Part shown: positions 16-55,009 of the stretch, one piece after another
Numbering within the stretch: position 1 is the first letter of the stretch
Layout: the number at the start of each line of letters is the position of its first letter
Assembly (NCBI GenBank): GCA_902777125.1
Contig: CACYSQ010000011.1
Location: 1-64,000, forward strand
Direction: 5' to 3'
DNA: 64,000 nucleotides
Origin: Ruminococcus flavefaciens
GTDB taxonomy: Bacteria; Bacillota; Clostridia; Oscillospirales; Ruminococcaceae
Made by a program: the position numbers and the translations under genes
The notes under the pieces: generated by a model
Database searches by the model: none
What the model was told of the DNA's origin: nothing
Seen by the model: only the letters and a program-made list of their open reading frames with translations

Positions 16-107
16 GTTTTTTCCACAATGGTATAAAAATGTCCGGAAGCATTGCTGCTTCCGGATTTGTTTTCCTTGAAAGATGATTATACCATTGTGG
101 AAAAAAC
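16..107. repeat. Short inverted-repeat element (MITE-like), copy 1
   Basis: The ends are a 21-bp inverted repeat: GTTTTTTCCACAATGGTATAA at 16-36 and its exact reverse complement at 87-107 (20 of 21 bases shown would suffice to find it; core CCACAATGGTATAA). Inside sits a smaller hairpin, CCGGAAGC / GCTTCCGG. A second copy with the same ends lies at 30875-30969. There is no coding capacity, so it would need a transposase in trans. Target-site duplication is not clear. Confidence 0.75.
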
Positions 108-210
108 CATAAAAAAGTCTTTGGAAAGGGGTCTGGGGAAGAACCTTTCCTCAGAAAGGTTTTCCCCAGTTAGTTCTCATAATACTTCCATATGAGTATC
201 ACGGTTAAAA
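108..210. repeat. Right-flank dispersed repeat following the inverted-repeat element
   Basis: This stretch is shared with 30970-31070: both contain CTTTGGAAAGGGGTCTGGGG, then AACCTTTCCTCAGAAAGGTT (a hairpin), then CATAATACTTCC. A shorter piece of the same sequence is at 19351-19402. It is therefore part of a larger dispersed non-coding repeat. No gene is seen between 1 and 277. Confidence 0.65.
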
Positions 211-2930: not shown

Positions 2931-3204
2931 GAGTAGGGCGGGGCGTCCCCGACACCCCACGAGTAGGGGCGGATATTATCCGCCTACGCCTTATGGCACA
3001 ATTGCCCAAAAACAATTGTAGGGGCGCATTCCGTGCGCCCGTCAAATCCGCAGAAGAACCGCCAAAAACAATTGTAGGGGCGCACACTGTGCGCCCGCCA
3101 AATTCACAGAAGAACCGCCGGAAACAATATGTAGGGACGCCCTTTGGGCGTCCGCTGCCAAGTACAGCCCTGTCATGGAACGCCGAGGGCGGCGTTCCCT
3201 ACAG
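2931..3204. repeat. Cluster of five GTAGGGGCG-type hairpin repeats
   Basis: The gap between pckG and gtrA (about 530 bp) holds no gene. It carries GTAGGGGCGGATATTATCCG at about 2972, a 56-bp unit repeated in tandem at 3006-3061 and 3062-3117 (each with TTGTAGGGGCGCA...TGCGCCC), a diverged unit TGTAGGGACGCCCTTTGGGC at 3129, and one in reverse orientation (GGAACGCCGAGGGCGGCGTT from 3178). Related hairpins are at 38776, 39044, 45449 and 54852. Confidence 0.7.
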
Positions 3205-7750: not shown

Positions 7751-9355
7751 ATGAAAAAGTTTATCTCTGCAGTCACCGCTGTAGCTATGACTGCAACAAT
7801 GGCTTGCGTTGCTGCACCTGTTTCATTTGCAGCTGATGCAACTAAGACACTTACTATCGCTACTTATGCACAGTCCGGTTCTGAATTTGCTGCTCAGGGC
7901 AGCAATGTGACCATTTCTGCTGATGCTATCGCTGCCGGCGATGTTAAGATCCCCTGCGCTGTATACCTCAACGAGGATACTGCTGATCTTCAGACAATCG
8001 CTATCCCGCTCACAATCAATTCTGCAAATGCAGATGTAAAGAACGTTAAGTTTGACCTCGTTGATCCTACAATGCCTTACTTCAGTGATAATCAGACTGT
8101 AACAACAGCAAGCGGCGATACATTCAAGACAAAGAATGCAGTTGTATTTGCTGCCGGTCTCGATGAGATGGGCGACTATGCTCCTACAGGTATCTTCAAC
8201 CTCACATCTGATACAAAGCAGGATGCTGCCGGCGCTAAGAACTACTACATCGGCTTCGGTCAGACATTCCCGAGAGGATATTCATGGACAGGTTCAAAGT
8301 CCGATGATTACCCGGTATTCGTATTTGACGTAACCTTCCCCAAGGGCACAGCTGCTGGCGATTACAAGATCCAGTTCTGTAACTATGAGAAGGACGCAAA
8401 GAAGAACCCCGCTCTCTTGCTCGAGACTGAGAACGCAAGATATGCAAACCTCAATGACCTCTCAAACCTTTCACTCAAGGAAATGACAATCACAGTAGGC
8501 GGCGGCAGTGAGCACGGCTCATCTACAACAACTACTACAACTACAACAGTTACAACATCTACAACCTCTTCTTCTTCCATCATAGACACAGATGCTGACA
8601 TCATCCTCGATTTCGGCAACTATGAGGGCGATAAGGGCGGCAAGGTTAACGTAAATGTTATCCTCAAGCAGGGTGCTACTAAGGAAGTTGGTTCTTACGA
8701 TGTTAAGTTCAAGCTCGACAGCCCCCTCAAGATCACAGCATTCGGTTCTTCCTCTGTTGCATACGGCGGAGCTTCTGTAGAGTCCAACAAGGAAACTCTC
8801 CAGGCAAGCTTCATCTCTCTCGATCCCAACAGTGATCCTGTAAAGGGAACTGAGGGCGAGGTTGTATTCAAGTTCGCAGTATCTATCCCTGATGATTGTG
8901 CAGACGGCACTTACAAGGTAGGTATTGATTCAGCTGAGATCTTCAAGTCTGGTAAGAACTCCGATAAGTGGACATTCGCTACAGTTAACGGTAATATCAC
9001 TGTTGGCAACCCCAACCCTGATACTTCCACAACAACAACTACAACAACAACTACTACTACAACTACATCTGACACAACAACTTCTACAACATCTACAACT
9101 CAGCCTCCTACGAACCCCGGCGATCCGCTCTACGGTGACGCTAACTGCGATAAAGTTGTAAATATCGCTGACGTTGTTGTTCTCAACAAGTGGATCCACG
9201 ACAACGCTTCCTACAACCTCACAGATCAGGGCAAGCTCAATGCTGACTGCTGCAATCCTAAGGGCGGCGCAGAGATCAATGCTGCTGACTCTACAGCTAT
9301 CATCAGGCACATCGTTCATAAGGATGGTTATGTAACTCTTCCTGTTCAGGCCTGA
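7751..9355 (+). CDS. scaA: Scaffoldin ScaA (N-terminal module, cohesin, dockerin)
   Basis: 534 residues. Signal peptide about 1-27 (ending VSFAA). Residues about 28-250 form a module that is not a standard cohesin by eye, though it ends with a cohesin-like strand pattern (YPVFVFDVTFPKG, MTITVGG). After a Thr-rich linker comes one clear cohesin (about 281-419), nearly identical to cohesins 1 and 2 of ScaB. A second Thr-rich linker leads to a C-terminal dockerin (about 457-534: GDANCDKVVNIADVVVLN and a second loop with an insertion). The ScaA cohesin binds enzyme dockerins and ScaC, and its dockerin binds ScaB. Published R. flavefaciens ScaA proteins carry two or three cohesins, so this copy is short. 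Confidence 0.92.
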   Translation: MKKFISAVTAVAMTATMACVAAPVSFAADATKTLTIATYAQSGSEFAAQGSNVTISADAIAAGDVKIPCAVYLNEDTADLQTIAIPLTINSANADVKNVKFDLVDPTMPYFSDNQTVTTASGDTFKTKNAVVFAAGLDEMGDYAPTGIFNLTSDTKQDAAGAKNYYIGFGQTFPRGYSWTGSKSDDYPVFVFDVTFPKGTAAGDYKIQFCNYEKDAKKNPALLLETENARYANLNDLSNLSLKEMTITVGGGSEHGSSTTTTTTTTVTTSTTSSSSIIDTDADIILDFGNYEGDKGGKVNVNVILKQGATKEVGSYDVKFKLDSPLKITAFGSSSVAYGGASVESNKETLQASFISLDPNSDPVKGTEGEVVFKFAVSIPDDCADGTYKVGIDSAEIFKSGKNSDKWTFATVNGNITVGNPNPDTSTTTTTTTTTTTTTSDTTTSTTSTTQPPTNPGDPLYGDANCDKVVNIADVVVLNKWIHDNASYNLTDQGKLNADCCNPKGGAEINAADSTAIIRHIVHKDGYVTLPVQA

Positions 9356-9387
9356 GCTTAAACAAATTGAATAAGAGCGTTAAGCTC
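9354..9387 (+). other. Stem-loop between scaA and scaB
   Basis: GAGCTTAA and TTAAGCTC form a perfect 8-bp stem that begins at the scaA stop codon and ends just before the scaB ribosome binding site. It has no T-tract, so it is more likely an mRNA processing or stability element than a terminator. Confidence 0.5.
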
Positions 9388-9404
9388 GGAAAGGAAATGC
9401 ACTG

Positions 9405-12400
9405 ATGAAGAAACTGCTTTCTGCGGTAACATCGTTTGTCATGGGCGCTTCGCTCATGACAAGTGCATTTGCTTCGTCGGTTAGTGCTGCCGGCAGTGTA
9501 TCTGCTGTGCAGCCTAACGTTAGTATAGGCGAAGTTAATAATGTTTCCGCAAATAGAAGTGCGGCTGTCTCAAACGGTGATATCGTCCTCGACTTCGGCA
9601 ACTACGAAGCTGATAAGGGCGGAAAGGTCAACGTTAATGTCACTCTTAAAAAGGGTGCAAGCTGTGAGGTCGGTTCCTACGACGTCAAGTTCAAGCTCGA
9701 CAGCCCGCTTACAATTACAGCCTTCGGTTCCTCAAGCGCAGCCTATGGCAGTGCTGCTGTTGAATCGAACAAAGAAACAATGCAGGCAAGCTTCATCTGT
9801 CTCGATACCAACAGTGATCCTGTAAAGGGTACTGAGGATGAAACAGTATTTAAGTTTGCCGTATCTATCCCCGATACTTGCCCGGACGGCATCTACAGCG
9901 TAGGCCTTGCCTCTGCTGAGATCTTCAAGGGCGGTAAGAACTCCGATACATGGAGCTATTCAGTAGAGGGCGGTACTATCAAGGTAGGCAATCCTACTGA
10001 TACTACCACAACTACTACAACTGTAATTACAACGTCCACTACCACCACAGCTCCTGCCGATAAGGACATCGTTCTTGACTTCGGTAAGTACGAGGGCGAA
10101 AAGGGCGGAAAGGTCAATGTAAATGTTGTTCTCCTGAAGGGCGCTGACAAGGAGGTTGGCTCCTACGACGTCAAGTTCAAGCTTGACAGCCCCCTCTCAA
10201 TAACTGCTTTCGGTTCTTCAAGTGCTGCTTACGGCGGCGCTGCTGTTGAGTCCAACAAGGATACTCTCCAGGCAAGCTTCATCTGCCTCGATACAAACAG
10301 CGATCCTGTTAAGGGAACTGAGAACGAAACAGTATTCAAGTTCGCCGTATCTATCCCTGATACTTGTCCGGACGGTGTCTACACTGTAGACCTCGCTTCT
10401 GCCGAGATCTTCAAGGGCGGCAAGAACTCCGATACATGGGCTTACGCAACAGTACCCGGTACTATCACCGTAGGCAAGCCTGTATCAACAACTTCTACAA
10501 CCACTCTTACCACAACAACTTCTTCGACGCTCCCCGATGTAAACGGCGATATCGTATTTGACTTCGGCAACTACGAGGCAAGCGCCGGCGAAAAGGTCAC
10601 TGTAAACGCTGTCCTCAAGGAAGGCGGAGACAAGGCCCTCGCTTCTATGGACGTCAAGTTCAAGCTCGATTCTCCTCTTACCATCAATGCGTTCGGTTCA
10701 TCTGCACCTGCATATAACAACGCTGCTGTAGAGAGCAACAAGTCTACTCTCCAGGCAAGCTTCATGTGCATGGATACAAATGCCGATCCTATCAAGGGTA
10801 CTGAGGGCGAGACTGTATTCAAGTTCAGCGTTGAGATCCCCGCTGGTACTGCTGACGGCATCTACAAGGTCGGCATCGCAAGCGCTGAGATCTTCAAGCA
10901 GGGTGAGAATTCCGATACATGGTCTTACTCTGTTGTGAACGGTAACATCAAGGTCGGCAACGTTACTACTACAAGCACGACCACAACTGTTACTACAACC
11001 TCTACAGTTACAACATCTACAACTGTACCTCCCGTTGAAGGCTCCGTTGAGTGGGTAATTCCTACTGTAAATGCTGAGCCCGGCGATACAGTTACAATGA
11101 ACGTTCTTGTCAAGAATTCCGACCTCGAGGTAGCCGGTGCTCAGTACATCATCAAGGCTGCTTCCCCGATCGTTTACGATTCTGCTTCCGGTTCTGACGC
11201 TTACAAGTCCGATATCGAAGCTAACGACAAGACTCAGGAATTTGCTTTCGGCGAAAAGATCGGTGCAGGCGTCAAGGCTGCAAACGACAGCAAGGTCATG
11301 GTTCTTACATATAAGGTTCCCGCTGACTGCGCTGACGGCACATATCCTGTAAAGTGGTCCGATGCATTCATCAGCGATACAAACGGTACTGACATCACTT
11401 CAAAGGTAAAGCTCACAGACGGTGCTATCGTCGTTGAGAAGCCTGTTGACGGTCAGATCAAGTGGGTTCTCGATAATGCAAAGGCTAAGCCCGGCGAGAC
11501 AGTAACTCTCAAGGCTGTTGTTTCTGACACAAATAATTCCGCAGTTTCTGTTGCAGGTGCTCAGTTCCTCATCAAGGCTGATTCACCCATCGCTTACAGC
11601 TCTATAGCTGGAACAGATGCTTACAAGGCTGCATTTGAGTCTAACAATGCAACTCAGGAATTCGCATTCGCAAACGAGAACGGTGACGGCGTTGCTGCTG
11701 AAAACGGCGCTACAGTTCTTACACTTACCTATAAGGTACCCGCTGACTGTGCTCCCGGAACATACGCTGTAAAGTGGTCCGATGCATTCATCAGCGATAC
11801 AAACGGAAAGTCCATCACTGCTAACGTTAAGCTCGTTGACGGTTCTATCACAGTAATCGACAATGAATACGGCACAGTAGAGTGGATAATCCCCGAGGTG
11901 GACGCTGAGGCTGGCGATACAGTTGCTATGGAAGTAGCTGTAAAGAACGGCACAGATCCTCTCACAGTAGCAGGTGCTCAGTTCATCATCAAGGCTGATG
12001 CTCCTATTGAGTATGCTTCCGCAACCGGTTCTGCCGGCTACAAGGCTGATCTCGAGGCAAACGACAGCACTCAGGAATTCGCATTCGCTGAGGCTAACGG
12101 TGCAAACGTAACAGCTGCTGACGGCAGCACAGTAATTGTACTCAATTACAAGGTGCCTGCTGATTGTCCTGCTGGCATCTACCCTGTAAAGTGGTCCGAT
12201 ATGTTCGTAAGTGCTGAGGACGGCGTTGACGTTACTGCAAACGTTAAGTTTACAGACGGATTTATCCGCGTTAACGTTCCTTCAACTTCTACAATTTCTA
12301 CAACAACTATCGACACCACAACTTCTACTGACACAACAACAACTATCGACACAACTACTTCTACAGACACAACCACAACCATCGACACCACTACATCTAC

Positions 12401-14888
12401 AGACACCACTACATCTACCACTGATACAACTTCTACTACTTCGATAACAACTATCACAGTTACGATCCCTGACGGATCTATCGGCTGGATAATCGACACA
12501 GTAGAGGCTGAGCGCGGTGATACAGTTAGTCTCAATGTAAAGGTTTACGATCCTAACGACACCAAGCTTCCTATAGGCGGTGCTCAGTACAAGATCGACC
12601 AGACTGCTCCCATTGAGTATGTAGGTGCTACTGATACATCTATTGCTTACCTCAGCACAATCGAAGGCAACAACACAACTAAGGAGTTCGCTTTCGCAAG
12701 TGCAGACGGTTCCGCAAAGATCGGTGCTGACGGTGCTGTTATCATGACTCTTACTTATAAGGTACCCGACGATTGTGCAGCAGGTGTTTACACTGTAGAG
12801 TTCGATAAGGGCTTCTACTTCATCTCTTCTGCTGACGGTCTTGACATGACAAGCCAGATCATTCCGATCAACGGTGCTATCATAGTTAAGGATCCTATAA
12901 CATCTACATCTACTACAGTTACAACAACAGATACAACTTCAACCATTGATACAACTACTATCGACACCACAACTTCTACAGACACAACCACAACTATCGA
13001 CACAACAACTTCTACAGATACGACCACAACTATCGACACCACAACTTCTACAGACACAACCACAACAAACACAGACACAACTTCTACAACTTCCACAACT
13101 ACAGTTACAGTTACAGTTCCCGAGGGAGCTATCGGCTGGATCATTGATACAGTAGAGGCTGAGCCTGGTCAGAATGTTTCCCTTAACATCAAGGTTTACG
13201 ATCCTTCCGGAGTAAAGCTTCCTATAGGCGGTGCTCAGTACAGGATCAACCAGTCTGATGCGATCGGCTACACAGGAGCATCTGAGAATTCACTTGCTTA
13301 CCTGAGTGCTATCGAGGGCAACAACACAACCAAGGAATTCGCATTCGCAAGTGCAGACGGCTCTGTAAGAGTCGGCGCTGACGGTGCAGTAGTAATGACT
13401 CTTAACTACACAATACCCGCTGAGTGTCCCGGCGGCACATATCCCGTTAAGTTTGATAAGGATTTCTTCTTCGTATCATCTGCTGACGGTGCTGATATGA
13501 CAAGCCAGATCCTCACATTCGACGGTGCTATCATAGTTAAGGTTCCCACATCTTCAACTACATCTACTACCGTTACAACTTCTACCGACACATCTACAAC
13601 TTCTACTGACACAACAACAACTATCGACACCACAACTTCTACTGACACAACTACTACAACAACCGACACAACTACAACTTCTACAGATACAACTACAACT
13701 TCCACAACAACTACTACATCTACCACATCTACAACTTCAACAACACTTCCTCCTCTTCCCGACGGAGCAGTTATCTGGCTCGGTGAGACAGTAAAGGGTG
13801 TTCCCGGTGAAACAGTTGAACTCAACTTCAACGTTGTTGATCCTAACGGATCCAAGCTTCCTATCTCCGGCGCTCAGTTCCTTGTAAAGGTTCAGAACGG
13901 TGAGGGCTTCGTTATAAGCGGCGTTTCAGGCTCCGATGCTTACGGTGCTGCTATCGAGGACCACAATGAGACAGGCGAGTATGCATTCGCAAACGGCATC
14001 GGCTCAGCTGTTGCTTCTGAGAACGGCAAGTCCGTTGTTAAGCTCTCTATCACAATTCCTGAGGGCGCTGAGGCTGGCGAGTATGTAGTTGATATGTACG
14101 ATCACGTTGTAACAGACGTTAATGGTTCCGTTATAACTGATAAGGTACTCGTTCTTGACGGTAAGATCATCGTTAATGACAACACACCTGAGGTCGTAAG
14201 CTCTTATGCTGTTGTTGAAACATCATACGGCTTCTACTTCAGCCACGATGACGGTACAAACGGACGCGGCTTCTCCAAGGATATGGTCAAGATCACAAAG
14301 ATCGTTGACGTTTACAGCGACGGTTCCGAGAAGGAAAGAGATGCTGTTGATGCTTCACTCATCAACTTCAACGGCAAGACACCTGCAAATGTATACGATG
14401 TAAATCGTACAGACTTCAAGTATGACCACGATGTACAGGTATACTACGGTGATACACCTCTTACCGACAAGGAAGGCAATCCGATCTTCATCACAGCTTA
14501 TATCGGCGTCAAGGGCGATATCAACCTTGATAACAAGATTACAGCTGTTGACGCTTCCGCAGCACTTATCTACAACGCTGACCTCCAGCTCGAGGGCAAT
14601 ACACCTGATACATTACAGCTCTCCTACAGCCCGCTCGTACAGGCTCCCGGAGATGTATACGATCAGTTTGCTGCATTCCTCGGCGATGTTGACGAAGATG
14701 AGTATGCAGAAAGCAACTGGAACAAGTCCAAGTCGGAAAGAAAGATCATTCCGATCGACGCTTCCAAGATCCTTGTATTCTACGCTGAACTCCAGAATCT
14801 TATCGCTGAATACGGCGAGAACGTTCCCACAGCTTCACAGCAGGAGCTCTGGGATAAGATCTGCCCCAGCAGAAATGCAAGCAAATAA
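9405..14888 (+). CDS. scaB: Main scaffoldin ScaB (nine cohesins, X-dockerin)
   Basis: 1827 residues. Signal peptide about 1-30. Nine cohesins by residue: 58-195, 219-357, 381-518, 546-677, 683-817, 823-957, 1024-1161, 1241-1378, 1454-1590. Cohesins 1-3 (LDFGNYE...YDVKFKLDSPL type) match the ScaA cohesin; 4-9 (W-I/L-x-x-T/V start, VAGAQ or PIGGAQ core) are a second type. Cohesins 4-6 follow each other with almost no linker; the others are joined by long Thr-rich linkers. The C terminus (about 1597-1827) is an X module plus a dockerin with a long insertion in the second calcium loop. In R. flavefaciens the first type binds enzymes and the second binds ScaA dockerins, and the X-dockerin docks on ScaE. 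RBS GGAAAGGAAA upstream. Confidence 0.95.
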   Translation: MKKLLSAVTSFVMGASLMTSAFASSVSAAGSVSAVQPNVSIGEVNNVSANRSAAVSNGDIVLDFGNYEADKGGKVNVNVTLKKGASCEVGSYDVKFKLDSPLTITAFGSSSAAYGSAAVESNKETMQASFICLDTNSDPVKGTEDETVFKFAVSIPDTCPDGIYSVGLASAEIFKGGKNSDTWSYSVEGGTIKVGNPTDTTTTTTTVITTSTTTTAPADKDIVLDFGKYEGEKGGKVNVNVVLLKGADKEVGSYDVKFKLDSPLSITAFGSSSAAYGGAAVESNKDTLQASFICLDTNSDPVKGTENETVFKFAVSIPDTCPDGVYTVDLASAEIFKGGKNSDTWAYATVPGTITVGKPVSTTSTTTLTTTTSSTLPDVNGDIVFDFGNYEASAGEKVTVNAVLKEGGDKALASMDVKFKLDSPLTINAFGSSAPAYNNAAVESNKSTLQASFMCMDTNADPIKGTEGETVFKFSVEIPAGTADGIYKVGIASAEIFKQGENSDTWSYSVVNGNIKVGNVTTTSTTTTVTTTSTVTTSTTVPPVEGSVEWVIPTVNAEPGDTVTMNVLVKNSDLEVAGAQYIIKAASPIVYDSASGSDAYKSDIEANDKTQEFAFGEKIGAGVKAANDSKVMVLTYKVPADCADGTYPVKWSDAFISDTNGTDITSKVKLTDGAIVVEKPVDGQIKWVLDNAKAKPGETVTLKAVVSDTNNSAVSVAGAQFLIKADSPIAYSSIAGTDAYKAAFESNNATQEFAFANENGDGVAAENGATVLTLTYKVPADCAPGTYAVKWSDAFISDTNGKSITANVKLVDGSITVIDNEYGTVEWIIPEVDAEAGDTVAMEVAVKNGTDPLTVAGAQFIIKADAPIEYASATGSAGYKADLEANDSTQEFAFAEANGANVTAADGSTVIVLNYKVPADCPAGIYPVKWSDMFVSAEDGVDVTANVKFTDGFIRVNVPSTSTISTTTIDTTTSTDTTTTIDTTTSTDTTTTIDTTTSTDTTTSTTDTTSTTSITTITVTIPDGSIGWIIDTVEAERGDTVSLNVKVYDPNDTKLPIGGAQYKIDQTAPIEYVGATDTSIAYLSTIEGNNTTKEFAFASADGSAKIGADGAVIMTLTYKVPDDCAAGVYTVEFDKGFYFISSADGLDMTSQIIPINGAIIVKDPITSTSTTVTTTDTTSTIDTTTIDTTTSTDTTTTIDTTTSTDTTTTIDTTTSTDTTTTNTDTTSTTSTTTVTVTVPEGAIGWIIDTVEAEPGQNVSLNIKVYDPSGVKLPIGGAQYRINQSDAIGYTGASENSLAYLSAIEGNNTTKEFAFASADGSVRVGADGAVVMTLNYTIPAECPGGTYPVKFDKDFFFVSSADGADMTSQILTFDGAIIVKVPTSSTTSTTVTTSTDTSTTSTDTTTTIDTTTSTDTTTTTTDTTTTSTDTTTTSTTTTTSTTSTTSTTLPPLPDGAVIWLGETVKGVPGETVELNFNVVDPNGSKLPISGAQFLVKVQNGEGFVISGVSGSDAYGAAIEDHNETGEYAFANGIGSAVASENGKSVVKLSITIPEGAEAGEYVVDMYDHVVTDVNGSVITDKVLVLDGKIIVNDNTPEVVSSYAVVETSYGFYFSHDDGTNGRGFSKDMVKITKIVDVYSDGSEKERDAVDASLINFNGKTPANVYDVNRTDFKYDHDVQVYYGDTPLTDKEGNPIFITAYIGVKGDINLDNKITAVDASAALIYNADLQLEGNTPDTLQLSYSPLVQAPGDVYDQFAAFLGDVDEDEYAESNWNKSKSERKIIPIDASKILVFYAELQNLIAEYGENVPTASQQELWDKICPSRNASK
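12309..12416 (+). repeat. 36-bp minisatellite in the ScaB linker, array 1
   Basis: Three tandem 36-bp units, each coding for IDTTTSTDTTTT or a close variant, in the linker between cohesins 6 and 7. The codons differ slightly from unit to unit. Confidence 0.85.
12960..13067 (+). repeat. 36-bp minisatellite in the ScaB linker, array 2
   Basis: Three more units of the same 12-residue repeat (IDTTTSTDTTTT) between cohesins 7 and 8; a single further unit is at 13623-13658 between cohesins 8 and 9. Confidence 0.85.
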
Positions 14889-14900
14889 GCAATACCTATA

Positions 14901-14928
14901 AAAAGCAGACCTTCGGGTCTGCTTTTTC
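14901..14928 (+). terminator. Terminator after scaB
   Basis: AAAAGCAGACC, a TTCG tetraloop and GGTCTGCTTTTT form a strong intrinsic terminator. It splits the cluster into scaCAB and cttA-scaE transcripts. The rest of the 14889-15252 gap holds the cttA promoter and leader. Confidence 0.9.
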
Positions 14929-15103
14929 TTGCTTATGAACTGGAAATATTTTTGCATTGACACCCTCCGGCATATCTGATATAATGTTCCCAAAGCAATA
15001 AACCGCATAAAATGTGCCGTAAAAAGCACTCGGCTTGTGAAATAAGCACAAAAATAGACTTGATTAATCGTCAATTATTTTTGAAAAAAATCCACGCTTA
15101 TGC

Positions 15104-15132
15104 TTGACTTATTATTATGAATGTGCTAAAAT
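15104..15132 (+). promoter_or_regulatory. Promoter of cttA-scaE
   Basis: TTGACT, 17 bp, TAAAAT. Predicted transcription start near 15139. Confidence 0.8.
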
Positions 15133-15138
15133 GAAGTT

Positions 15139-15252
15139 ATGAATTTCCGGGATAACTATATGCTTTAGCAGATGTTTCCCCGAAATTAAGCCCGATGGTA
15201 TTCCTCCGGGAGTGCCGGGAGGCAAAAAAATACGATAGAGAGGTATAGAACA
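15139..15252 (+). promoter_or_regulatory. Structured leader of cttA
   Basis: Two stems are evident: AATTTC-GGG pairs with CCC-GAAATT around an inner TGCT/AGCA hairpin (15142-15187), and CCTCCGG pairs with CCGGGAGG (15197-15224). The second is purine-rich and could mask a ribosome binding site. No known riboswitch class was recognised. Confidence 0.45.
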
Positions 15253-17469
15253 ATGAAGAATTCATTATTCAAGAGAGCTCTGGCTACAGTTGCTGCTGTT
15301 CCGCTCGCTCTCACACAGAGTCTCACTTATTCTTTCGCTGCTGACACCGATACAGCAACTGAGACAGCAAGCGTATCTGAAACTGAGACTGCCGGCAACT
15401 CCAAGAACTACAACCTTGAGAGTCTGCTCTTCATCAAGCCCGCTAAGACAAGCACAGAGTCTGAGTGGAACCTTACACTCGACGGTGTTCTTGACCAGCT
15501 CGTTCAGGACGGCAAGACAAGCGGCACTATCGACACTACCATCATCTTCAATGCTGTAAGCAACTACGTTGGCCAGTACAGCGAGATCGCTAAGGCTGCT
15601 CTCGGTCAGGTTACTGACGCTAAGTACGAGATCAAGAACGGCGATGTTGTTGTATCCGCTAAGGTAGGCGAGGTAGCAAAGGCTCTCGGCGGCGATTTCC
15701 GGAATTCCTTCGGAAGCCTTGCAAAGAATCTTGCAGAGAAGTACAACAACCCCAACTTCAATAATATCGACTTCAGCAAGGTTAAGACAGCTGGTACTAT
15801 CGAGATCGTTATCGGAACATCTCAGCTCTCCGTTGAGACAAAGATTCCCGTATCCTTCTCTTTCACTCCCGCTGAGACAGGTGAGGCTCTCGGACCTGAG
15901 GCTACACTCAATTTCATCGGCGAAAAGCTCGAAGAGGTAAAGAACATTGTCAAGGCTGAGATCGACGCTTCCAGCATCGCTGACAAGGCTGGCGCTAAGA
16001 AGGACGTTGACGAGCAGATCGACAAGTATGTAAGCAACCTCAACAGAGGCAAGAACGCTCTCGCTAAGGCTATGACCTTCAAGAGAAGCGGCAACTTCAC
16101 AGCATTTGCAGGATTCCTTGCAGAAGTTAACGCATGGACAAAGCAGAAGTTCAACAGAACTGTTCCTGCTACAGGTGCTGATATAGCTGCTAACTCCACA
16201 TTCGCTAAGGTTTACGACAACGTAAAGACTCAGCTCAACGCTGCTGCTGAGCCCGTTGTATTCGATATCAGCGCTGCTGACCTCGGAAAGTTCGCTGACG
16301 AGCAGCTCTCTCAGATCGTTCTTACAGCTGACGGCGCAGGCACTACAGTATTCGAGGCAAGATTCCCCGATGCTGAGGCTGAGCAGGTAAAGGCTCTCTT
16401 CGCTGAGGACGCTGCAACTGATTACGCTGATTCCTACAAGACCATCAAGGTTACAATTGACACAACAAAGCTTGACAATACAGGCATCGCTGTAGATGTA
16501 AAGATCAAGAGAATTGTTGAGACCAAGGCTAAGGAAACAACAACTTCATCTTCTACAACTACAACAACAACTACTACAACTACTACAACAACTACAACTT
16601 CTTCAACAACTTCTTCCACAACTTCTTCTACAACTTCTTCCACAACTTCTTCCACAACAACTTCAACTTCTTCCACAACAACATCTACTACAACAACATA
16701 CGCTTACACAACTGAGCTCCAGAGTGTATATGCAGAAATCGATGCTACATACGGTTTCTACACAAACCTCGATGATGCTTTCTCCACAAAGCAGGTAAAC
16801 GGTCTTGAGATCCACACTGTTTACAACGATATCCAGATCGATGAGGCTGGCAACCGCGTAACAGCTGGTCAGCACGCTGGCACTGTAATTGATGCTAAGA
16901 TGGCATTCGATTTCGGCGGCAAGACTCCTGTAAACACATTCGATGCTACAGTTTCCAACTTCAAGTATGAGATCCCCGTTATCTACACAGGTGACGATAT
17001 CCTCGCTGAGGACGGCACAACTGTTATCATCAAGAAGGGTGACACACTCAAGAAGGCTGACGGCTCTGACGTTACTGTAACAGCTTACATCGGCGTTAAG
17101 GGTGACGCAAACCTCGACGGCAAGCTCAGCCCTGTTGATGCTTCCTGCGTTCTTGTCTTCGCTGCTGACCTCCAGGAAATGGATGACGGTGGCAACGTAA
17201 GAGAGCCTCAGACAGTTGTTCTCTCTAAGCAGAGCGAGCTCGTAGCAAACGATCCTGCTGGTATCTACGATAACTTCGCAGCATTCCTCGCAGACGTAAA
17301 GAACGAGATTAATCCTCTCCACGCTTGGAAGACAGGCAAGGGCAGCATCGCTGACGGTACAAGCCGTGCATTCAACGCTGTTGACGCAAGCTGGATCCTC
17401 GTTGCTAACGCAAATATCCAGGAAGGCAATACTCCTGCAGAGGCTTGGAGCAGACTCCTTGGCAACTGA
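15253..17469 (+). CDS. cttA: Cell-surface substrate-binding protein CttA (X-dockerin)
   Basis: 738 residues. Signal peptide about 1-30 (ending YSFAA). Residues about 45-428 form the substrate-binding part expected for CttA, which in R. flavefaciens holds two cellulose-binding modules; here no known carbohydrate-binding family can be named by eye. A Ser/Thr linker of about 50 residues (429-483) follows, with almost only Thr and Ser. The C-terminal X module (about 484-613, EIDATYGFY start) and dockerin (614-738) closely match those of ScaB, including VTAYIGVKGDANLDGKLSP and an insertion in the second calcium loop. The X-dockerin should bind ScaE, so CttA fixes the cell to plant fibre. RBS GAGAGG. 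Confidence 0.9.
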   Translation: MKNSLFKRALATVAAVPLALTQSLTYSFAADTDTATETASVSETETAGNSKNYNLESLLFIKPAKTSTESEWNLTLDGVLDQLVQDGKTSGTIDTTIIFNAVSNYVGQYSEIAKAALGQVTDAKYEIKNGDVVVSAKVGEVAKALGGDFRNSFGSLAKNLAEKYNNPNFNNIDFSKVKTAGTIEIVIGTSQLSVETKIPVSFSFTPAETGEALGPEATLNFIGEKLEEVKNIVKAEIDASSIADKAGAKKDVDEQIDKYVSNLNRGKNALAKAMTFKRSGNFTAFAGFLAEVNAWTKQKFNRTVPATGADIAANSTFAKVYDNVKTQLNAAAEPVVFDISAADLGKFADEQLSQIVLTADGAGTTVFEARFPDAEAEQVKALFAEDAATDYADSYKTIKVTIDTTKLDNTGIAVDVKIKRIVETKAKETTTSSSTTTTTTTTTTTTTTTSSTTSSTTSSTTSSTTSSTTTSTSSTTTSTTTTYAYTTELQSVYAEIDATYGFYTNLDDAFSTKQVNGLEIHTVYNDIQIDEAGNRVTAGQHAGTVIDAKMAFDFGGKTPVNTFDATVSNFKYEIPVIYTGDDILAEDGTTVIIKKGDTLKKADGSDVTVTAYIGVKGDANLDGKLSPVDASCVLVFAADLQEMDDGGNVREPQTVVLSKQSELVANDPAGIYDNFAAFLADVKNEINPLHAWKTGKGSIADGTSRAFNAVDASWILVANANIQEGNTPAEAWSRLLGN

Positions 17470-17486
17470 TCAAAATCAAGTTTACT

Positions 17487-17510
17487 ACCTGCCGTCTATG
17501 GGCGGCAGGT
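17487..17510 (+). other. Stem-loop between cttA and scaE
   Basis: ACCTGCCG and CGGCAGGT form a perfect 8-bp stem; an A-rich rather than T-rich tail follows, so it is not a normal terminator. It may set the ratio of cttA to scaE mRNA. Confidence 0.5.
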
Positions 17511-17547
17511 AACAATAAAAAACACTATCTGAAAGGAAAGAATTACA

Positions 17548-18450
17548 ATGAAGAAGAATAACCTCAAGAGTGTATTCGCTGCACTCGCTGTTTCTGCAAT
17601 TGCTGTTTCTGCAACAGCTGTAACAGCTTCAGCATCAAATTATTCAGACTCAATCAAAAAAGGCGACAACAAGGAGGTCGCTTACGACGGAAGCGCTTAT
17701 GTAACAACTCTCAATCCCGATGACGCAGCTACAAAGGCTGAGATCATTATCGACAAGGTTGTTGTTAAGTACGACGCAGCTAAGACTCCCGGCTCTGAGC
17801 AGGTTGTTAACGTTGCTGTTAAGAACGCTGACAAGAAGTATGCTTCTGTTGGTCTTCACTTCATCTATGATACTCGTCTCAATGTTGTAAACGATGAGGA
17901 CGGTTATCCTGTAACTTATAGCGGAAAACTCGGTTACGAGCCCAGAGACCTTAAAAATGGCGAGCTCTTCGTTTCTCACGATGGTTCTTCTGATAAGGGT
18001 ACAGACGGCGATGCTGTTTGGTCCATGAAGTTTAAGCTCCCTGCTGATGCTAAGGCTGGCGATCTCTACCCGATCGGTATCGAGTTCAGAACAAGCGCTG
18101 TATCTGAGGACTGCTTCACAAACGCTTACGATGATAACGATGGTAAGCTCATGCAGGCTTATGTATTCACACGTGGTATCACAAACGGCTACATCAAGCT
18201 CGAGGAAGAATCAACTACAACAACAACAACAACAACTACTACTACTACTACAACTACTACAACAACATCTACATCTACATCTACTGATACAGATACATCA
18301 ACAACAACAACATCTTCTACAAGCGCTGCTGTTTCTACAACAAACAACAACGATGCTCCTAAGACAGGTGTTGCTGGCGTAGGCGTAGCTGCTGCTGGTC
18401 TTGCTGTAGCACTCGGTACTGCATTCGTTCTCAGAAAGAAGGAAGACTAA
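17548..18450 (+). CDS. scaE: Anchoring scaffoldin ScaE (cohesin, sortase signal)
   Basis: 300 residues. Signal peptide about 1-30 (ending TASA). One cohesin at about 45-217 (IIIDKVVVKYDAAKTPGSEQ at its start, ITNGYIKLEE at its end). A Thr-rich linker (about 218-262) spans the wall. The C terminus is a sortase sorting signal: APKTG at 270-274, a hydrophobic stretch of 21 residues, and the charged tail RKKED. In R. flavefaciens ScaE is covalently attached to the wall and binds the X-dockerins of ScaB and CttA. The first residue of the sorting motif is Ala instead of Leu. RBS GAAAGGAAAG. Last gene of the cluster. Confidence 0.94.
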   Translation: MKKNNLKSVFAALAVSAIAVSATAVTASASNYSDSIKKGDNKEVAYDGSAYVTTLNPDDAATKAEIIIDKVVVKYDAAKTPGSEQVVNVAVKNADKKYASVGLHFIYDTRLNVVNDEDGYPVTYSGKLGYEPRDLKNGELFVSHDGSSDKGTDGDAVWSMKFKLPADAKAGDLYPIGIEFRTSAVSEDCFTNAYDDNDGKLMQAYVFTRGITNGYIKLEEESTTTTTTTTTTTTTTTTTTSTSTSTDTDTSTTTTSSTSAAVSTTNNNDAPKTGVAGVGVAAAGLAVALGTAFVLRKKED

Positions 18451-28769: not shown

Positions 28770-28931
28770 CAGTACCGGCAAAATTTTAGCGTATTTTGAG
28801 AAATCTCACGTTAAAACTTGTACTATTCGCATAAAATTCCGACGTTCGCCATATATTTCCATGAAGAATGATACGGTCAGATGTTCAGTCCGGACTTAGT
28901 CCGGAGGGTTTGTTATTACGAGCGGCAAGAA

Positions 28932-29114
28932 GTGGGCGCCTTCACTTGCAAGGCGTCCCCTCTGCGAAAACAGTCCACCGGACTGTTTTCTGCATTCCCC
29001 CCTTGCGAGGCGCTTTGTTTAGTTTCGCTTTCCCTTAAAAGCTGAAAGGAACGCGACCAGAGGCGCTGTCTCTGGACTCTGCTAAAGGGTCGTGGACCCT
29101 TTAGAATCCCATTA
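28932..29114 (+). repeat. Structured dispersed repeat, copy A
   Basis: The gap 28696-29190 holds no gene but carries this repeat: hairpin H1 (CGCCTT...AAGGCG, loop CACTTGC), H2 (AAAACAGTCC...GGACTGTTTT), a variable middle, H4 (CCAGAGGC...GTCTCTGG, 29058-29076), H5 (CTAAAGGGTC...GACCCTTTAG, 29082-29104) and the tail GAATCCCATT. The same order is at 41316-41491, with paired base changes that keep the stems. Confidence 0.75.
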
Positions 29115-29190
29115 TCGCAGGGAGTTTTTAGCCGGCGACCCTCCTGTCCCGACCGTAGTGGATAGCTCAGATTATAATTCGGAGGACACA

Positions 29191-30777
29191 ATGAAAAAGC
29201 AGACTTATTTAAAAGGCTCGCTGATACTCATGGCATCAGCGGTCGCCGCAAAGGCTCTCGGAGCGGCTTTTCGCATACCCCTGACAAATATGCTCGGCGG
29301 CGTAGGCATGGGCTATTTCGGCTGTGCCTACAGCATTTTCATGCCGGTCTACGCCCTGATAGTCACGGGTATCTCCTCGGCGGTCGCAAGACTGACGGCT
29401 TCCCGGGCGGCTCTCGGACTTTACAGGAGCGTCCGGCGTATCCGGAGCACTGCCCTGCTCATTTTCACGGCGGCAGGCGTTCCCGCGAGCATTCTCATGG
29501 CTGTTCTCGCAAGACCCTACAGCATCTACTCGTCAGGCGGTCCGGAGGCTGCGGCAGGCATCGTGATGATAGCTCCGGCGGTTGTTTTCGGCTGCATAAC
29601 GGCAGTAGAACGCGGATATTTCGAGGGTCTGAGCAATATGTACCCGACTGCTCTCTCTCAGGTCGCGGAGGGCATCGTGAAGGTCGCGGCAGGTCTTTGG
29701 CTCTGCGGCTATGTCACGGCTCACGGTGAACAGATGCGGAGGCTTTTTCCGTGGGTGACGGATATCCGAGCTCTTGCAGCGGCGGCAGGCATACTCGGCG
29801 TGACCCTCTCAACGGCTGCTGCGGCTCTGTATTTCGGCATAATGAGGCTGTTTTCGGCACCACTTCCGGCAGGGGAGGAACGTCCGGAGAGCCGCCGCTT
29901 TATAGCAAAGGAGCTTGTCCGTGCGGCACTCCCGATAGGTGTTGCGGCACTCATCACCGACCTTTCGGCGCTGATAGATATGTGGAGCATAATCGGCTGT
30001 CTTTCTAGAAACGGAGCGTATGAGGGACTGTTTTCGGGAGCGGCTGCCGGAGAGAGCGCACAGTTCGTTTACGGCTCATTTTCGGGGATAGCACTGACCG
30101 TTTTCAACCTCGTTCCGTCCGTTACGAATATGCTCGGCAAGGGCGCACTGACGAATACGGCTGCCGCAAGAGAGCTTGGCAGTCCGGAAGCCTTGAAACG
30201 CAGCAGTATACAGGCACTTCTCACCGCTGAGGTCATTGCTGTTCCGGCAGCGGCCGGGCTCGGGATATTTGCCCCGGAGGTGCTTGGACTGCTCTTTCCG
30301 AGACAGCCGGAGGAGGTCGCGCTGTGCGTTTTCCCGATGAGGCTGCTCATGCCGGGAATGCTCTGCCTTTGCCTGTCTTTCCCGGTTTTCAGTATGCTTC
30401 AGGGCTTGGGCAGAGCGTCCGCACCTCTGAAAATAATGCTCGCTGGAACAGCGGCGAAGCTTGCCGGGAACCTCGTTCTGCTGCCGGTCGTCGGCGTGGA
30501 GGGGGCTGCCGTTTCGACATCGCTGAGCTATGCGCTGATACTTGCACTTGCACTGCGGACTTACCTCCGGGAAGCCGGTATAAAGCCGGAAGTAAAGCCG
30601 TTTGCGGCGGTTCTGTACGCAGGGGCGATGTGCGCGGGAACGTCCCTGCTTGCCGGCGGAATGGCAGAACGCTTCGGCAGCCTCGCAGTGCTCGCCTGCG
30701 CCGGAACGACCGGCTGTGCAGCGTATATCGCCACCCTTAGACTGACCCTCGGAAAAAAGCTAAAATCCCCGGCATAA
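29191..30777 (+). CDS. SpoVB-like polysaccharide flippase (MOP superfamily)
   Basis: 528 residues from the ATG at 29191 (GGAGG six bases upstream). About 14 hydrophobic segments. The N terminus KKQTYLKGSLILMASA and RIPLTNMLGGVGMGYFG is typical of the SpoVB/YabM group of the MurJ-like MOP superfamily, which flips lipid-linked sugars or peptidoglycan precursors. In spore formers SpoVB is needed for the spore cortex; related proteins act in growing cells. In several Firmicutes it is near mazG and rqcP, and here it is 3.5 kb away on the other strand. Its own promoter is not obvious. Confidence 0.87.
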   Translation: MKKQTYLKGSLILMASAVAAKALGAAFRIPLTNMLGGVGMGYFGCAYSIFMPVYALIVTGISSAVARLTASRAALGLYRSVRRIRSTALLIFTAAGVPASILMAVLARPYSIYSSGGPEAAAGIVMIAPAVVFGCITAVERGYFEGLSNMYPTALSQVAEGIVKVAAGLWLCGYVTAHGEQMRRLFPWVTDIRALAAAAGILGVTLSTAAAALYFGIMRLFSAPLPAGEERPESRRFIAKELVRAALPIGVAALITDLSALIDMWSIIGCLSRNGAYEGLFSGAAAGESAQFVYGSFSGIALTVFNLVPSVTNMLGKGALTNTAAARELGSPEALKRSSIQALLTAEVIAVPAAAGLGIFAPEVLGLLFPRQPEEVALCVFPMRLLMPGMLCLCLSFPVFSMLQGLGRASAPLKIMLAGTAAKLAGNLVLLPVVGVEGAAVSTSLSYALILALALRTYLREAGIKPEVKPFAAVLYAGAMCAGTSLLAGGMAERFGSLAVLACAGTTGCAAYIATLRLTLGKKLKSPA

Positions 30778-30814
30778 GCGCGATACCCATTCAAAATAAT
30801 TATGGGAATTTATT

Positions 30815-30847
30815 GAGGGAAACCCTTTTGAAAAAGGGTTCTCCCTC
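30815..30847 (+). terminator. Hairpin after the SpoVB-like gene
   Basis: GAGGGA-ACCCTTTT pairs with AAAAGGGT-TCCCTC (nested stems). No long T-run; it may be part of a repeat as well as a terminator. Confidence 0.5.
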
Positions 30848-30874
30848 AAACTCCCTTCCTAAAACTTTTATCTG

Positions 30875-30969
30875 GTTTTTTCCACAATGGTATAATAATC
30901 CCCGGAAGCTCAATAAACTTCCGGGTTTTTCTTTTCTACATAAGATGATTATACCATTGTGGAAAAAAC
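30875..30969. repeat. Short inverted-repeat element (MITE-like), copy 2
   Basis: Same inverted ends as 16-107: GTTTTTTCCACAATGGTATA from 30875 and its complement ending at 30969, with an inner CCCGGAAG / CTTCCGGG hairpin. Ends are identical to copy 1 while the inner part differs, which suggests selection or recent spread of the ends. Confidence 0.75.
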
Positions 30970-31078
30970 AAAAATAAAGCCTTTGGAAAGGGGTCTGGGG
31001 AAGAACCTTTCCTCAGAAAGGTTTGCCCCAGTAGGTTCACATAATACTTCCGTATAGGCATCGCGCTTATGCCGGGGA
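30970..31078. repeat. Right-flank dispersed repeat, second copy
   Basis: Matches 108-210 over about 90 bp: CTTTGGAAAGGGGTCTGGGG, then the AACCTTTCCTCAGAAAGGTT hairpin, then CATAATACTTCC. No gene lies between 30778 and 31080. Confidence 0.65.
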
Positions 31079-31080
31079 TT

Positions 31081-31674
31081 TTACTTTTTCAGATCGTCGG
31101 TTATGGGGACGATATCGCTGGCGGTAACGGGGACTAATATGACGTTCTTTTTATCCTCGGTATTTTCGCGGGTAGGGAAGAATCCGACGGTGAAATCGGT
31201 CTTGTCGGGGGTGAGGACAAATCCTGAGACGACGCCGGTGAAGGTGCCATTTGCAGGGATAGTGAACGGGCTTTTGCGGTACTTGTCCGAGAAGTTATTG
31301 ATAGCGTAGAGCTCGGCTCTTACGGCGCTGGAGAGCTCTGTACCGTCGCTGAAAAGCAGGTAGAAGTTATTGAGACGGGTGAGCTCATAGGCTGTATCGG
31401 TATTGTTTCTGATTGTGATGTCGAGGTAGTAGTAATGCTCGCCGTTTTCAGTCTGAGCGCCTGCGTCGATGACCTTGTTGAGGGTGAAAAAGGTCTCGTT
31501 AGCCTCAGCCTCCTGGTTGACATTTGCAGTGACCTTTATCTCACCGATCTCGGGGTGATCTGCGTATTTTGCGGCATTGCTGCTGCTGCTCTTTATATTG
31601 TGCTTGCAGCCGACAGCGGGGGTGAGTGCGAGAACAGCCGCCATAGCGAGGGCTGTGAATCTAAATATCTTCAT
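31081..31674 (-). CDS. Lipoprotein with DUF4352-like domain
   Basis: 197 residues. Lipoprotein signal with lipobox AVGC at about residues 20-23, so surface-anchored. The rest resembles the DUF4352/telokin-like immunoglobulin fold: YYLDITIRNNTDTAYEL, SDGTELSSAVRAEL and TFTGVVSGFVL. Such domains occur in secreted bacterial proteins of unknown role. RBS GGAGG. It stands alone between the repeat region and the rny leader. Confidence 0.75.
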   Translation of the reverse strand: MKIFRFTALAMAAVLALTPAVGCKHNIKSSSSNAAKYADHPEIGEIKVTANVNQEAEANETFFTLNKVIDAGAQTENGEHYYYLDITIRNNTDTAYELTRLNNFYLLFSDGTELSSAVRAELYAINNFSDKYRKSPFTIPANGTFTGVVSGFVLTPDKTDFTVGFFPTRENTEDKKNVILVPVTASDIVPITDDLKK

Positions 31675-33883: not shown

Positions 33884-33921
33884 CTGTACTGAATCAGCAA
33901 TAATCTGTACAGTTTTTTCGT

Positions 33922-33958
33922 CCGGACTCAAGGGAGGACCTCCCTTGAGAATCCCATT
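33922..33958 (+). repeat. Structured dispersed repeat, copy C (3' part only)
   Basis: GGACTCAAGGGAGG...CCTCCCTTGAG followed by AATCCCATT equals hairpin H5 and tail of the repeat at 28932 and 41316. The front part is missing. Confidence 0.65.
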
Positions 33959-39010: not shown

Positions 39011-39043
39011 AAGACCTATCGTGAAAACGGTAGGTCTTTTTTT
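39010..39043 (+). terminator. Terminator of tRNA-Leu
   Basis: AAAGACCTATCGT, GAAA loop, ACGGTAGGTCTTT, then T-run. Confidence 0.92.
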
Positions 39044-39120
39044 GTAGGGGCGCATTCCGTGCGCCTGTGCCTATGTTGCGGCAAACATGAAACGTTTGTA
39101 GGGGCTGCCTTTGGCAGTCC
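39044..39120. repeat. Two GTAGGGG-type hairpin repeats
   Basis: TGTAGGGGCGCATTCCGTGC at 39044 and TGTAGGGGCTGCCTTTGGCA at 39099, the first almost identical to the copies at 3018. Confidence 0.65.
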
Positions 39121-41315: not shown

Positions 41316-41491
41316 GGGGACGCTCTCTCTTGCAGAGCGTCCCCTCTGCGAAAACAGTCCACTGGACTGTTTTCTGCATTCACCCCTTGCAGAGCGCCTT
41401 GCGGAATGCAGGGCTTTGCCCCGCACCCCACCAGAGGCGCTGCCTCTGGACTCCGCTCAAGGGATGACCTCCCTTGAGAATCCCATTATAT
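41316..41491 (+). repeat. Structured dispersed repeat, copy B
   Basis: H1: GGGGACGCTCT with AGAGCGTCCCC (perfect 11 bp, loop CTCTTGC). H2: GAAAACAGTCCA with TGGACTGTTTTC. A second AGAGCG at 41391-41396 could compete for the same partner. H4: CCAGAGGC with GCCTCTGG. H5: CTCAAGGG with CCCTTGAG. Tail GAATCCCATT. It lies between spoIVA and sipL but in opposite orientation to them. Confidence 0.8.
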
Positions 41492-54851: not shown

Positions 54852-55009
54852 AGTAGGGGCTGGCGTCCCCGACAGCCCGGCTGCCGGAAGGCAGCAAATA
54901 TATGAACGGTGGGACGTCGGGTGACTCCCTGTTGTACAGGGAGATGTCAGCATAGCTGACAGAGGGTGCGGGCAGCCGTTAGCTGCGCTGTCCTCTACAG
55001 CCGTTCACC
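54852..55009. repeat. Multi-hairpin repeat between malQ and glgP
   Basis: An outer stem GAACGG (54904) with CCGTTC (55001) encloses CTCCCTGT-TGT-ACAGGGAG, TGTCAGC-ATA-GCTGACA and GCAGC-CGTTA-GCTGC; before it are GCTGCC-GGAA-GGCAGC and a GTAGGGGCTG...CAGCCC hairpin. The last bases overlap the malQ stop codon. Confidence 0.7.

What the first reader, a model, noticed from the sequence alone, without database searches (positions are those of the whole stretch)
28932..29114. Dispersed repeat whose hairpins are kept by paired base changes
Seen: copies at 28932-29114 and 41316-41491 (and a 3' piece at 33922-33958) share order H1-H2-variable-H4-H5-tail. In H1, CGCCTT/AAGGCG becomes CGCTCT/AGAGCG; in H5, CTA/TAG becomes CTC/GAG. 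These double changes keep pairing. The AGAGCG or GAGGCG motif also recurs after H2, so H1 could switch partner. Copies ignore gene orientation. Inference: a mobile or selected structured element, not described to my knowledge.
Basis: partly seen in the sequence, partly recalled or inferred. Interest (0 to 1): 0.75.

Follow-up and report, generated by a model that had tools for sequence, protein, structure and literature searches.

The report
Scattered repeat with three-stranded hairpin code
A short non-coding repeat scattered through Ruminococcus genomes keeps not only its paired hairpin arms but also a third stretch of bases that changes in step with them as a three-stranded (triplex) DNA fold would require, which would make a long-suspected DNA structure testable.

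Summary
The repeat is real. It is one copy of a hairpin-rich, non-coding family of about 172-240 nt scattered through Ruminococcus: 11 near-complete copies plus fragments in this genome, more than 40 matches in each of several relatives, and not found in the same gene gaps of the relatives I inspected. Window copy 1, like most own full copies, starts further left than reported (hairpin H0). The paired base changes hold across 220 copies, but G-T intermediates in H1, H2, H4 and H5 are more than tenfold rarer than G-U in RNase P RNA of the genus and no commoner than A-C, so the pairing looks like DNA pairing, not ordinary RNA pairing.

The main new result: the 'recurring motif' after H2 behaves not as another partner of H1 but as a third strand. 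Four of its columns covary three ways with H1 pairs at one constant offset, parallel to the 5' arm (C*G-C/T*A-T, then G*G-C/A*A-T). These are triple-helix rules; 82 held-out copies obey them 75-81 times per column. Polymerase copying cannot create this mirror-order relation. A second, nested 48-nt repeat (one copy in the window) follows the same plan. Closest known: intrastrand triplex (PIT/TM) motifs. The physical triplex and its function remain unproven.

The parts
28888..28907 (+). H0 hairpin (TCCGGA/TCCGGA + GG), 5' end of copy 1
   Evidence: 13 of 18 own-genome copies tabulated start with a GTCCGGAC-like motif; homologous GTGCGGAGATAACTCCGCAGG in other species (by eye)
28932..28960 (+). 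H1 of copy 1 (two non-Watson-Crick pairs, decayed)
28963..28994 (+). H2 of copy 1 (A-tract, ACAGTCC/GGACTGT, T-tract)
28999..29009 (+). third-strand segment of copy 1
29023..29113 (+). H3 (type B), H4, H5 and AATCCCATT tail of copy 1
33920..33958 (+). internally deleted copy: first bases of H0 fused to H5 + tail
41316..41344 (+). H1 of copy 2: GGGGACGCTCT / AGAGCGTCCCC, intact
41347..41378 (+). H2 of copy 2
41383..41393 (+). third-strand segment of copy 2 (CCCCTTGCAGA); at the two variable upper columns: T-A*A and C-G*G
41407..41487 (+). H3 (type A), H4, H5 and AATCCCATT tail of copy 2
54921..54967 (+). module B: a separate 48-nt repeat with the same plan (hairpin, hairpin, third strand GAGGGT)

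Best explanation
A dispersed, non-coding mobile-type DNA repeat whose single strand folds into an intrastrand triple helix. H1 forms an 11-bp hairpin, H2 forms next to it, and the strand then returns along the major groove of H1 from its foot upward. Over the GGGGA part of the 5' arm the third strand is CCCCT (pyrimidine motif, parallel to the purine strand). Further up, where the purines lie on the 3' arm, it is G/A (purine motif, antiparallel to that strand). Shown: dispersal, gaps without it in relatives, covariation that is nearly always Watson-Crick, and three-way covariation at one constant parallel offset. Inferred: that the covariation reflects a physical triplex, that it forms in DNA, and that it is selected through spread of the repeat (a fold recognised, or causing fork stalling, during copying) rather than through a host function at each site. 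The repeat occurs alone or inside carriers with different ends (for example the TAAATCATAATTTA inverted-repeat element of other species); the moving enzyme is unknown.
For: Three-way covariation: the strongest non-stem signals in all 171 columns are columns 20-76, 26-70, 10-76, 4-70, 9-75 and 21-75. The parallel offset +66 scores 2.43 against 0.18 for the next parallel offset and at most 0.84 for any antiparallel register. Held-out copies (82 unique, 38 of them under 95% identical to any earlier copy): 81, 79, 75 and 76 of 82 follow the rule for triples 4-26-70, 10-20-76, 9-21-75 and 3-27-69. Representatives under 90% identical (57): p = 1.9e-12, 6.6e-13, 1.3e-12 and 7e-4. Linkage control: normalised information 0.80-0.87 for the third-strand column against at most 0.32 for any other variable column outside H1 (columns 4, 9, 10). 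On a tree of the other columns, 23 of 28, 31 of 35, 20 of 31 and 6 of 17 changes are coordinated in all three positions. A second repeat family mostly obeys the same rules: C-G*G 23 / T-A*A 3 of 26, and C-G*G 15 / T-A*T 7 of 26. DNA rather than RNA: H1+H2+H4+H5 hold 8750 Watson-Crick, 59 G-T, 109 A-C and 97 other cells; RNase P of the genus holds 2367, 231, 40 and 141. Gaps without the repeat.
Against: No physical measurement. Columns 7 and 8 fit neither triplex motif, 72 fits only as a tolerated T*C-G (recalled rule), and 77 follows its pair only in part. C+*G-C steps need protonation and are poor at neutral pH (recalled). The published E. coli triplex motif formed in vitro but was not seen in vivo by DMS footprinting (PMC4666352, discussion read). 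Recombination between copies can inflate the number of apparent coordinated events. H3 has more G-T (48 of 1595 cells, 3.0%; A-C 57) than the other stems, though its alignment mixes two hairpin types. Further module B sequences hold exceptions: 2 of 19 distinct ones at each triple. At one orthologous site in three species the stems gain one-sided changes and no double ones, so there is no sign of selection in place there; at two other old sites (L034/L036, L050/L041) the element is nearly identical despite 71-82% flanks, which points the other way or to homogenisation.
Confidence: 0.6

Rival explanations
1. It is a structured RNA (transcribed element) whose tertiary base triples, like the major-groove triple helix of SAM-V-type pseudoknots, explain the third-strand covariation.
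For: Three-way covariation is as expected for RNA base triples; [quoted passage not shown] U*A-U and C+*G-C are common in RNA (recalled).
Against: G-U cells 0.65% in H1, H2, H4, H5 (1.0% with H3) against 8.3% in RNase P of the same genus, and not above A-C. Nearly equal numbers in both orientations to tandem genes. No Rfam match near a gathering score. Antiparallel purine triples are better known in DNA (recalled).
Confidence: 0.2
2. The paired changes are mutational: polymerase template switching in palindromes makes the arms match (quasipalindrome correction), with no selection on structure.
For: Nearly perfect Watson-Crick arms, few intermediates, some double changes even among close copies (L083 by eye); the process is established in E. 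coli (PMC7202029, abstract and opening part of the introduction read).
Against: It copies only in direct or reverse-complement order, so it cannot make columns 69, 70, 75 and 76 track H1. No inverted H1 loop is seen in 56 representatives, although spacer inversion is expected from arm switching (expectation from the abstract of PMC8604942 in the listing). It may still contribute to H2, H4 and H5.
Confidence: 0.1
3. A protein (for example a transposase) reads H1 and the later segment together; the covariation is recognition, not a triple helix.
For: Hairpin-plus-single-strand recognition is known for IS200/IS605-type transposases (recalled). Some copy-rich genomes do carry Y1 transposase (G062 17 matches, G032 3, G065 2, G035 1).
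Against: Y1 transposase (PF01797) has no match in G018, G015, G063, G077, G048 or G087, which carry many copies, and only one match below the cut-off in the own genome. A mirror-order site is not a repeat of a B-DNA binding site.
Confidence: 0.15

Closest known systems
Intrastrand triplex motifs (PIT / TM_ECO; Holder et al. 2015, PMC4666352)
   Same: Hairpin plus a third strand on the same DNA strand obeying triplex rules; many intergenic copies in bacteria, no strand bias.
   Different: Third-strand covariation was not reported ('covar' does not occur in the main text); the authors found no link of TM_ECO with mobile elements.
Archaeal recurrent G-quadruplex/triplex repeats (PMC8044849)
   Same: Dispersed intergenic repeat able to form hairpin and antiparallel triplex in solution (passages read).
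   Different: G-run based, archaeal, third strand 5' of the hairpin; the word covariation does not occur (listing).
MITEs and similar bacterial repeats (BOX, RUP, SPRITE; review PMC10969869)
   Same: Short, non-coding, dispersed, hairpin-rich; in G048/G087 the element lies inside an inverted-repeat carrier.
   Different: No terminal inverted repeat seen and no target duplication in this genome; the word triplex does not occur in that review.
REP/BIME with RAYT transposase
   Same: Dispersed palindromes in intergenic DNA.
   Different: Y1 transposase has no match in several copy-rich genomes; longer, ordered multi-hairpin unit.

Membership tests
Intrastrand triplex motif (PIT/TM) | Third strand obeys triplex base and direction rules on a Watson-Crick hairpin | tested here: met
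   by sequence covariation only; columns 7-8 do not fit and 77 fits in part
Intrastrand triplex motif (PIT/TM) | Homopurine stretch with loops of 1-6 nt (ITxF definition) | tested here: not met
   purines switch strand at columns 6-9; second loop is 37 nt and contains H2
Intrastrand triplex motif (PIT/TM) | Triplex seen by CD/NMR | not testable with these tools
   no wet-lab data
MITE | Terminal inverted repeats | tested here: inconclusive
   own genome: TAAATCATAATTTA-type TIR 0 matches, none seen by eye; present around core copies in G048 and in some of G035 and G087
MITE | Target-site duplication | tested here: not met
   own genome: 1 of 18 copies with a repeat of 5 nt or more, 1.8 expected from shuffles; not tested in other genomes
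MITE | Short, non-coding, multi-copy, absent at orthologous sites | tested here: met
REP/BIME (RAYT-dependent) | Y1_Tnp (PF01797) transposase in copy-rich genomes | tested here: not met
   none in G018, G015, G063, G077, G048, G087 (present in G062, G032, G065, G035)
Structured non-coding RNA family | Covariation with G-U intermediates | tested here: not met
Structured non-coding RNA family | Match to an Rfam family | tested here: not met
   whole window, gathering; 28850-29200, E up to 5: two hits far below gathering
Structured non-coding RNA family | Transcript | not testable with these tools
   no RNA-seq available

The most novel reading that the evidence does not exclude
Bacterial mobile repeats are under selection to form an intrastrand, alternate-strand DNA triple helix in vivo. 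Third-strand bases have repeatedly changed together with the Watson-Crick pair they contact, in two different repeat families. That would be evolutionary evidence that triplex DNA is a working, recognised structure rather than an in vitro curiosity.
Probability: 0.5. Interest if true: 0.88.

Novelty: new variant of a known kind. Interest (0 to 1): 0.74.

Why it matters
Whether DNA triplexes are used by cells is an old question: a well-studied bacterial motif folds in vitro but was not seen in vivo (PMC4666352). Here the sequence record itself supplies a test. Each third-strand base makes a prediction about the pair it contacts, hundreds of natural variants exist, and a 77-nt oligonucleotide with single or triple changes can be probed directly. 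It also shows how to search for triplexes: look for three-way covariation at a constant parallel offset, allowing hairpins in the loops.

Tried and rejected
Direct-repeat homogenisation with the 3' arm: best direct offset 0.85, and offset 56 explains only column 20-76. REP/RAYT or IS200/IS605 mobilisation: judged unlikely because several copy-rich genomes show no Y1 transposase. Target duplication in the own genome: not found. RNAalifold on the core gave a poor structure although the hand-drawn one scores far better; I did not rely on it. The RNase P control was redone with the Rfam structure because the RNAalifold structure biases against A-C; it uses 29 of the 30 loci fetched. The first A-C counts were inflated by a key clash and corrected. 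In one search one row (L135) was cut at the wrong anchor; one search uses the right copy. Alignment A1 holds 40 of the 56 representatives, and its row L249 is a fragment aligned badly and left in. Gene context used a crude longest-ORF rule on copies with 500 nt on both sides (135 hits, 104 distinct contexts, 103 classed). Orthologous-site comparison gave mixed results. Viral contigs: one pattern scan, 10 stretches, not examined as viruses. The search scored at most 5 candidates per genome, so its copy numbers are lower bounds. Paper searches showed no description of this repeat family in the rows listed; several list only the top rows of many papers, and the library holds open-licence papers only. 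No paper search was made for module B.

Full report
WHAT WAS CHECKED. Searching the genome the window belongs to (2.62 Mb, 46 contigs) with copy 2 gave 11 near-full copies and a series of fragments. The near-full own copies share the order H1-H2-H3-H4-H5-tail. In 9 of these 11 an earlier hairpin, H0 (GTCCGGACTTAGTCCGGA or a variant), stands about 25 nt before H1. In the table of 18 own copies, fragments included, 13 start with this GTCCGGAC-like motif. The call's rule put L015 in the other class, although a shortened H0 can be seen in its flank. The piece at 33920-33958 begins with the first nine bases of H0 and continues directly into H5, so it is a shrunken element, as is L019. A nested 48-nt repeat, called module B here, sits in or near H4 of several own copies (by eye).

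DISTRIBUTION AND MOBILITY. A search of 149 related genomes found the repeat in 55: the own genome, 51 of the same genus and 3 of the same order; at most 5 candidates per genome were scored. Eight genomes searched more fully gave 18 to 55 matches each. The genus is Ruminococcus by inference: record titles are mostly Ruminococcus and R. flavefaciens, and contig lengths of G032 and G062 equal those of R. flavefaciens XPD3002 and MA2007. For copy 2, the 19 relatives' loci that I printed show the flanking genes close together without the repeat, and the profile finds no match in these 19 loci. For copy 1, none of the 19 loci printed holds a profile match, although one (L235) has a fragment resembling H5 in the other direction; synteny across that gap was recognisable in only part of them. 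In G048, 15 loci were printed, one of them truncated; the 14 others are nearly identical and lie inside an element with inverted ends TAAATCATAATTTA. That end motif has 31 forward and 33 reverse matches in G048, 27 and 35 in G087, and none in the own genome. At one shared site, G048 has the carrier with the core and G087 has the same ends with different contents (by eye). Other species show other flanks around the same core. The own copies have no target duplication. Y1 transposase has no match in six copy-rich genomes but is present in others, such as G062 with 17 matches. So the core is a conserved unit that moves with, or is exchanged between, different carriers. The enzyme is unknown.

PAIRED CHANGES. 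On 40 of 56 representative copies aligned by sequence alone, 97.3% of cells in H1, H2, H4 and H5 pair, 25 of 43 pairs have double changes, 173 cells show them, and none of 500 shuffles reaches that. The intermediates are unusual for RNA: over 220 unique copies, H1+H2+H4+H5 have 8750 Watson-Crick, 59 G-T, 109 A-C and 97 other cells; H3, whose alignment mixes two hairpin types, has 1344, 48, 57 and 146. At the four outer pairs of H2, which vary freely, there are 835 Watson-Crick, 5 G-T, 17 A-C and 18 other cells. RNase P RNA from 29 loci of the same genus, counted on the Rfam structure, has 2367 Watson-Crick, 231 G-U, 40 A-C and 141 other cells. Pairing is therefore kept as Watson-Crick pairing, with little of the wobble tolerance that marks RNA. 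In 55 independent nearest pairs, one-sided changes in stems are few compared with loops, and double changes grow with divergence: in the closest class (under 3%), 19 loop differences of 804 sites, 5 one-sided and 1 double stem change.

THE THIRD STRAND. Mutual information over 163 copies showed, besides the stems, that columns 69, 70, 75 and 76 follow the H1 pairs 3-27, 4-26, 9-21 and 10-20. Over all 171 columns the six strongest non-stem signals belong to this set. The order is parallel to the 5' arm at a constant offset of 66, the mirror image of the 3' arm. At 3 and 4 the states are G-C with C and A-T with T. At 9 and 10 they are C-G with G and T-A with A. These are the pyrimidine and purine triplex rules, each with the correct strand direction as stated in PMC4666352 (passages read). 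In a test on 82 unique copies fetched afterwards (38 of them under 95% identical to any earlier one), 81 of 82 (4-26-70), 79 of 82 (10-20-76), 75 of 82 (9-21-75) and 76 of 82 (3-27-69, five of six misses being gaps) follow the rule; for the earlier 167 copies the numbers are 158, 165, 155 and 159. Among 57 representatives under 90% identity the association gives p of 1.9e-12, 6.6e-13, 1.3e-12 and 7e-4. Nearby unrelated columns do not show it. Columns 7, 8 and 77 do not follow the rules, or only in part. On a tree from the other columns, 23 of 28, 31 of 35, 20 of 31 and 6 of 17 changes are coordinated; recombination among copies may raise these numbers. Because a polymerase copies only in direct or reverse-complement order, a mirror-order match cannot be a copying product.

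A SECOND CASE. Module B (GTGACTCCCC-loop-GGGGAG-[hairpin]-GAGGGG) has the same plan. Among 26 unique copies, triple 5-23-42 is C-G*G in 23 and T-A*A in 3. Triple 10-18-47 is C-G*G in 15 and T-A*T in 7, the rest being gaps (3) and one exception. Both changes fit the purine motif. In 19 distinct sequences taken from the 30 rows of a later pattern search (5 of 297 genomes of the family matched), 17 of 19 follow the rule at each triple, with one T-A*A, one T-A*T and two exceptions each. One copy lies in the window at 54921-54967 with third strand GAGGGT, as the rule predicts for its T-A pair. The numbers are small: the effective number of sequences is about 13.

FUNCTION. The most likely reading is that the folded single strand is what matters for the spread of the repeat, for example by recognition or fork stalling during replication; this is inference. 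At one site shared by three species, stems have collected one-sided changes and no double ones, as expected if selection acts on spreading copies and not in place; two other sites point the other way. One near-identical locus pair differs by a 53-nt deletion running from H4 through H5 to just past the tail. H2 has flanking A- and T-runs of mostly 4-6 in the 190 of 252 hits that the pattern matched, so it could also work as a two-way terminator; that is untested. Contexts are 57 tandem (28 and 29 by orientation), 31 convergent and 15 divergent by a crude ORF rule.

LITERATURE. Read: PMC4666352 (abstract, passages, part 1 of 2 of the discussion), PMC8044849 (passages), PMC7202029 (abstract and opening of the introduction), PMC2267715 and PMC10969869 (word finds with passages). 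None of what I saw describes this family. Ruminococcus does not occur in the main text of PMC4666352, PMC2267715 or PMC10969869. A PIT paper by Hoyne and Maher was seen only as a citation.

Noticed in passing
window 54921-54967: Module B, a 48-nt hairpin-hairpin-third-strand repeat, nested inside a further hairpin; also found in three other genera of the family.
   Followed up: partly
window 3006-3117 and 39042-39068: Another dispersed hairpin, TTGTAGGGGCGCATTCCGTGCGCCC, tandem in one place; variants occur in the carriers of other species.
   Followed up: no
window 66-207, 30755-31089: A 142-146 nt repeat with inverted copies 43 nt apart (76-86% alike), not part of this family.
   Followed up: no
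window 8500-18400: Thr/Ser-rich coding repeats with 300-nt internal repeats; they look like cellulosome genes by eye, no family search was made.
   Followed up: no
L046, L051, L259 (other species): The element is flanked on both sides by near copies of a local terminator hairpin, as if the terminator had been duplicated on insertion (by eye).
   Followed up: no
L136, L186, L214: The repeat on a 1.49-Mb contig titled Alistipes (L136, L186), in L186 partly as a tandem duplicate 247 nt apart (the same spacing in L214); the title may be wrong or the repeat may have crossed phyla.
   Followed up: no
L008 versus L032: Same locus, 99.5-100% flanks, 53-nt deletion through H4-H5; G036 may contain DNA of the window's species.
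   Followed up: partly
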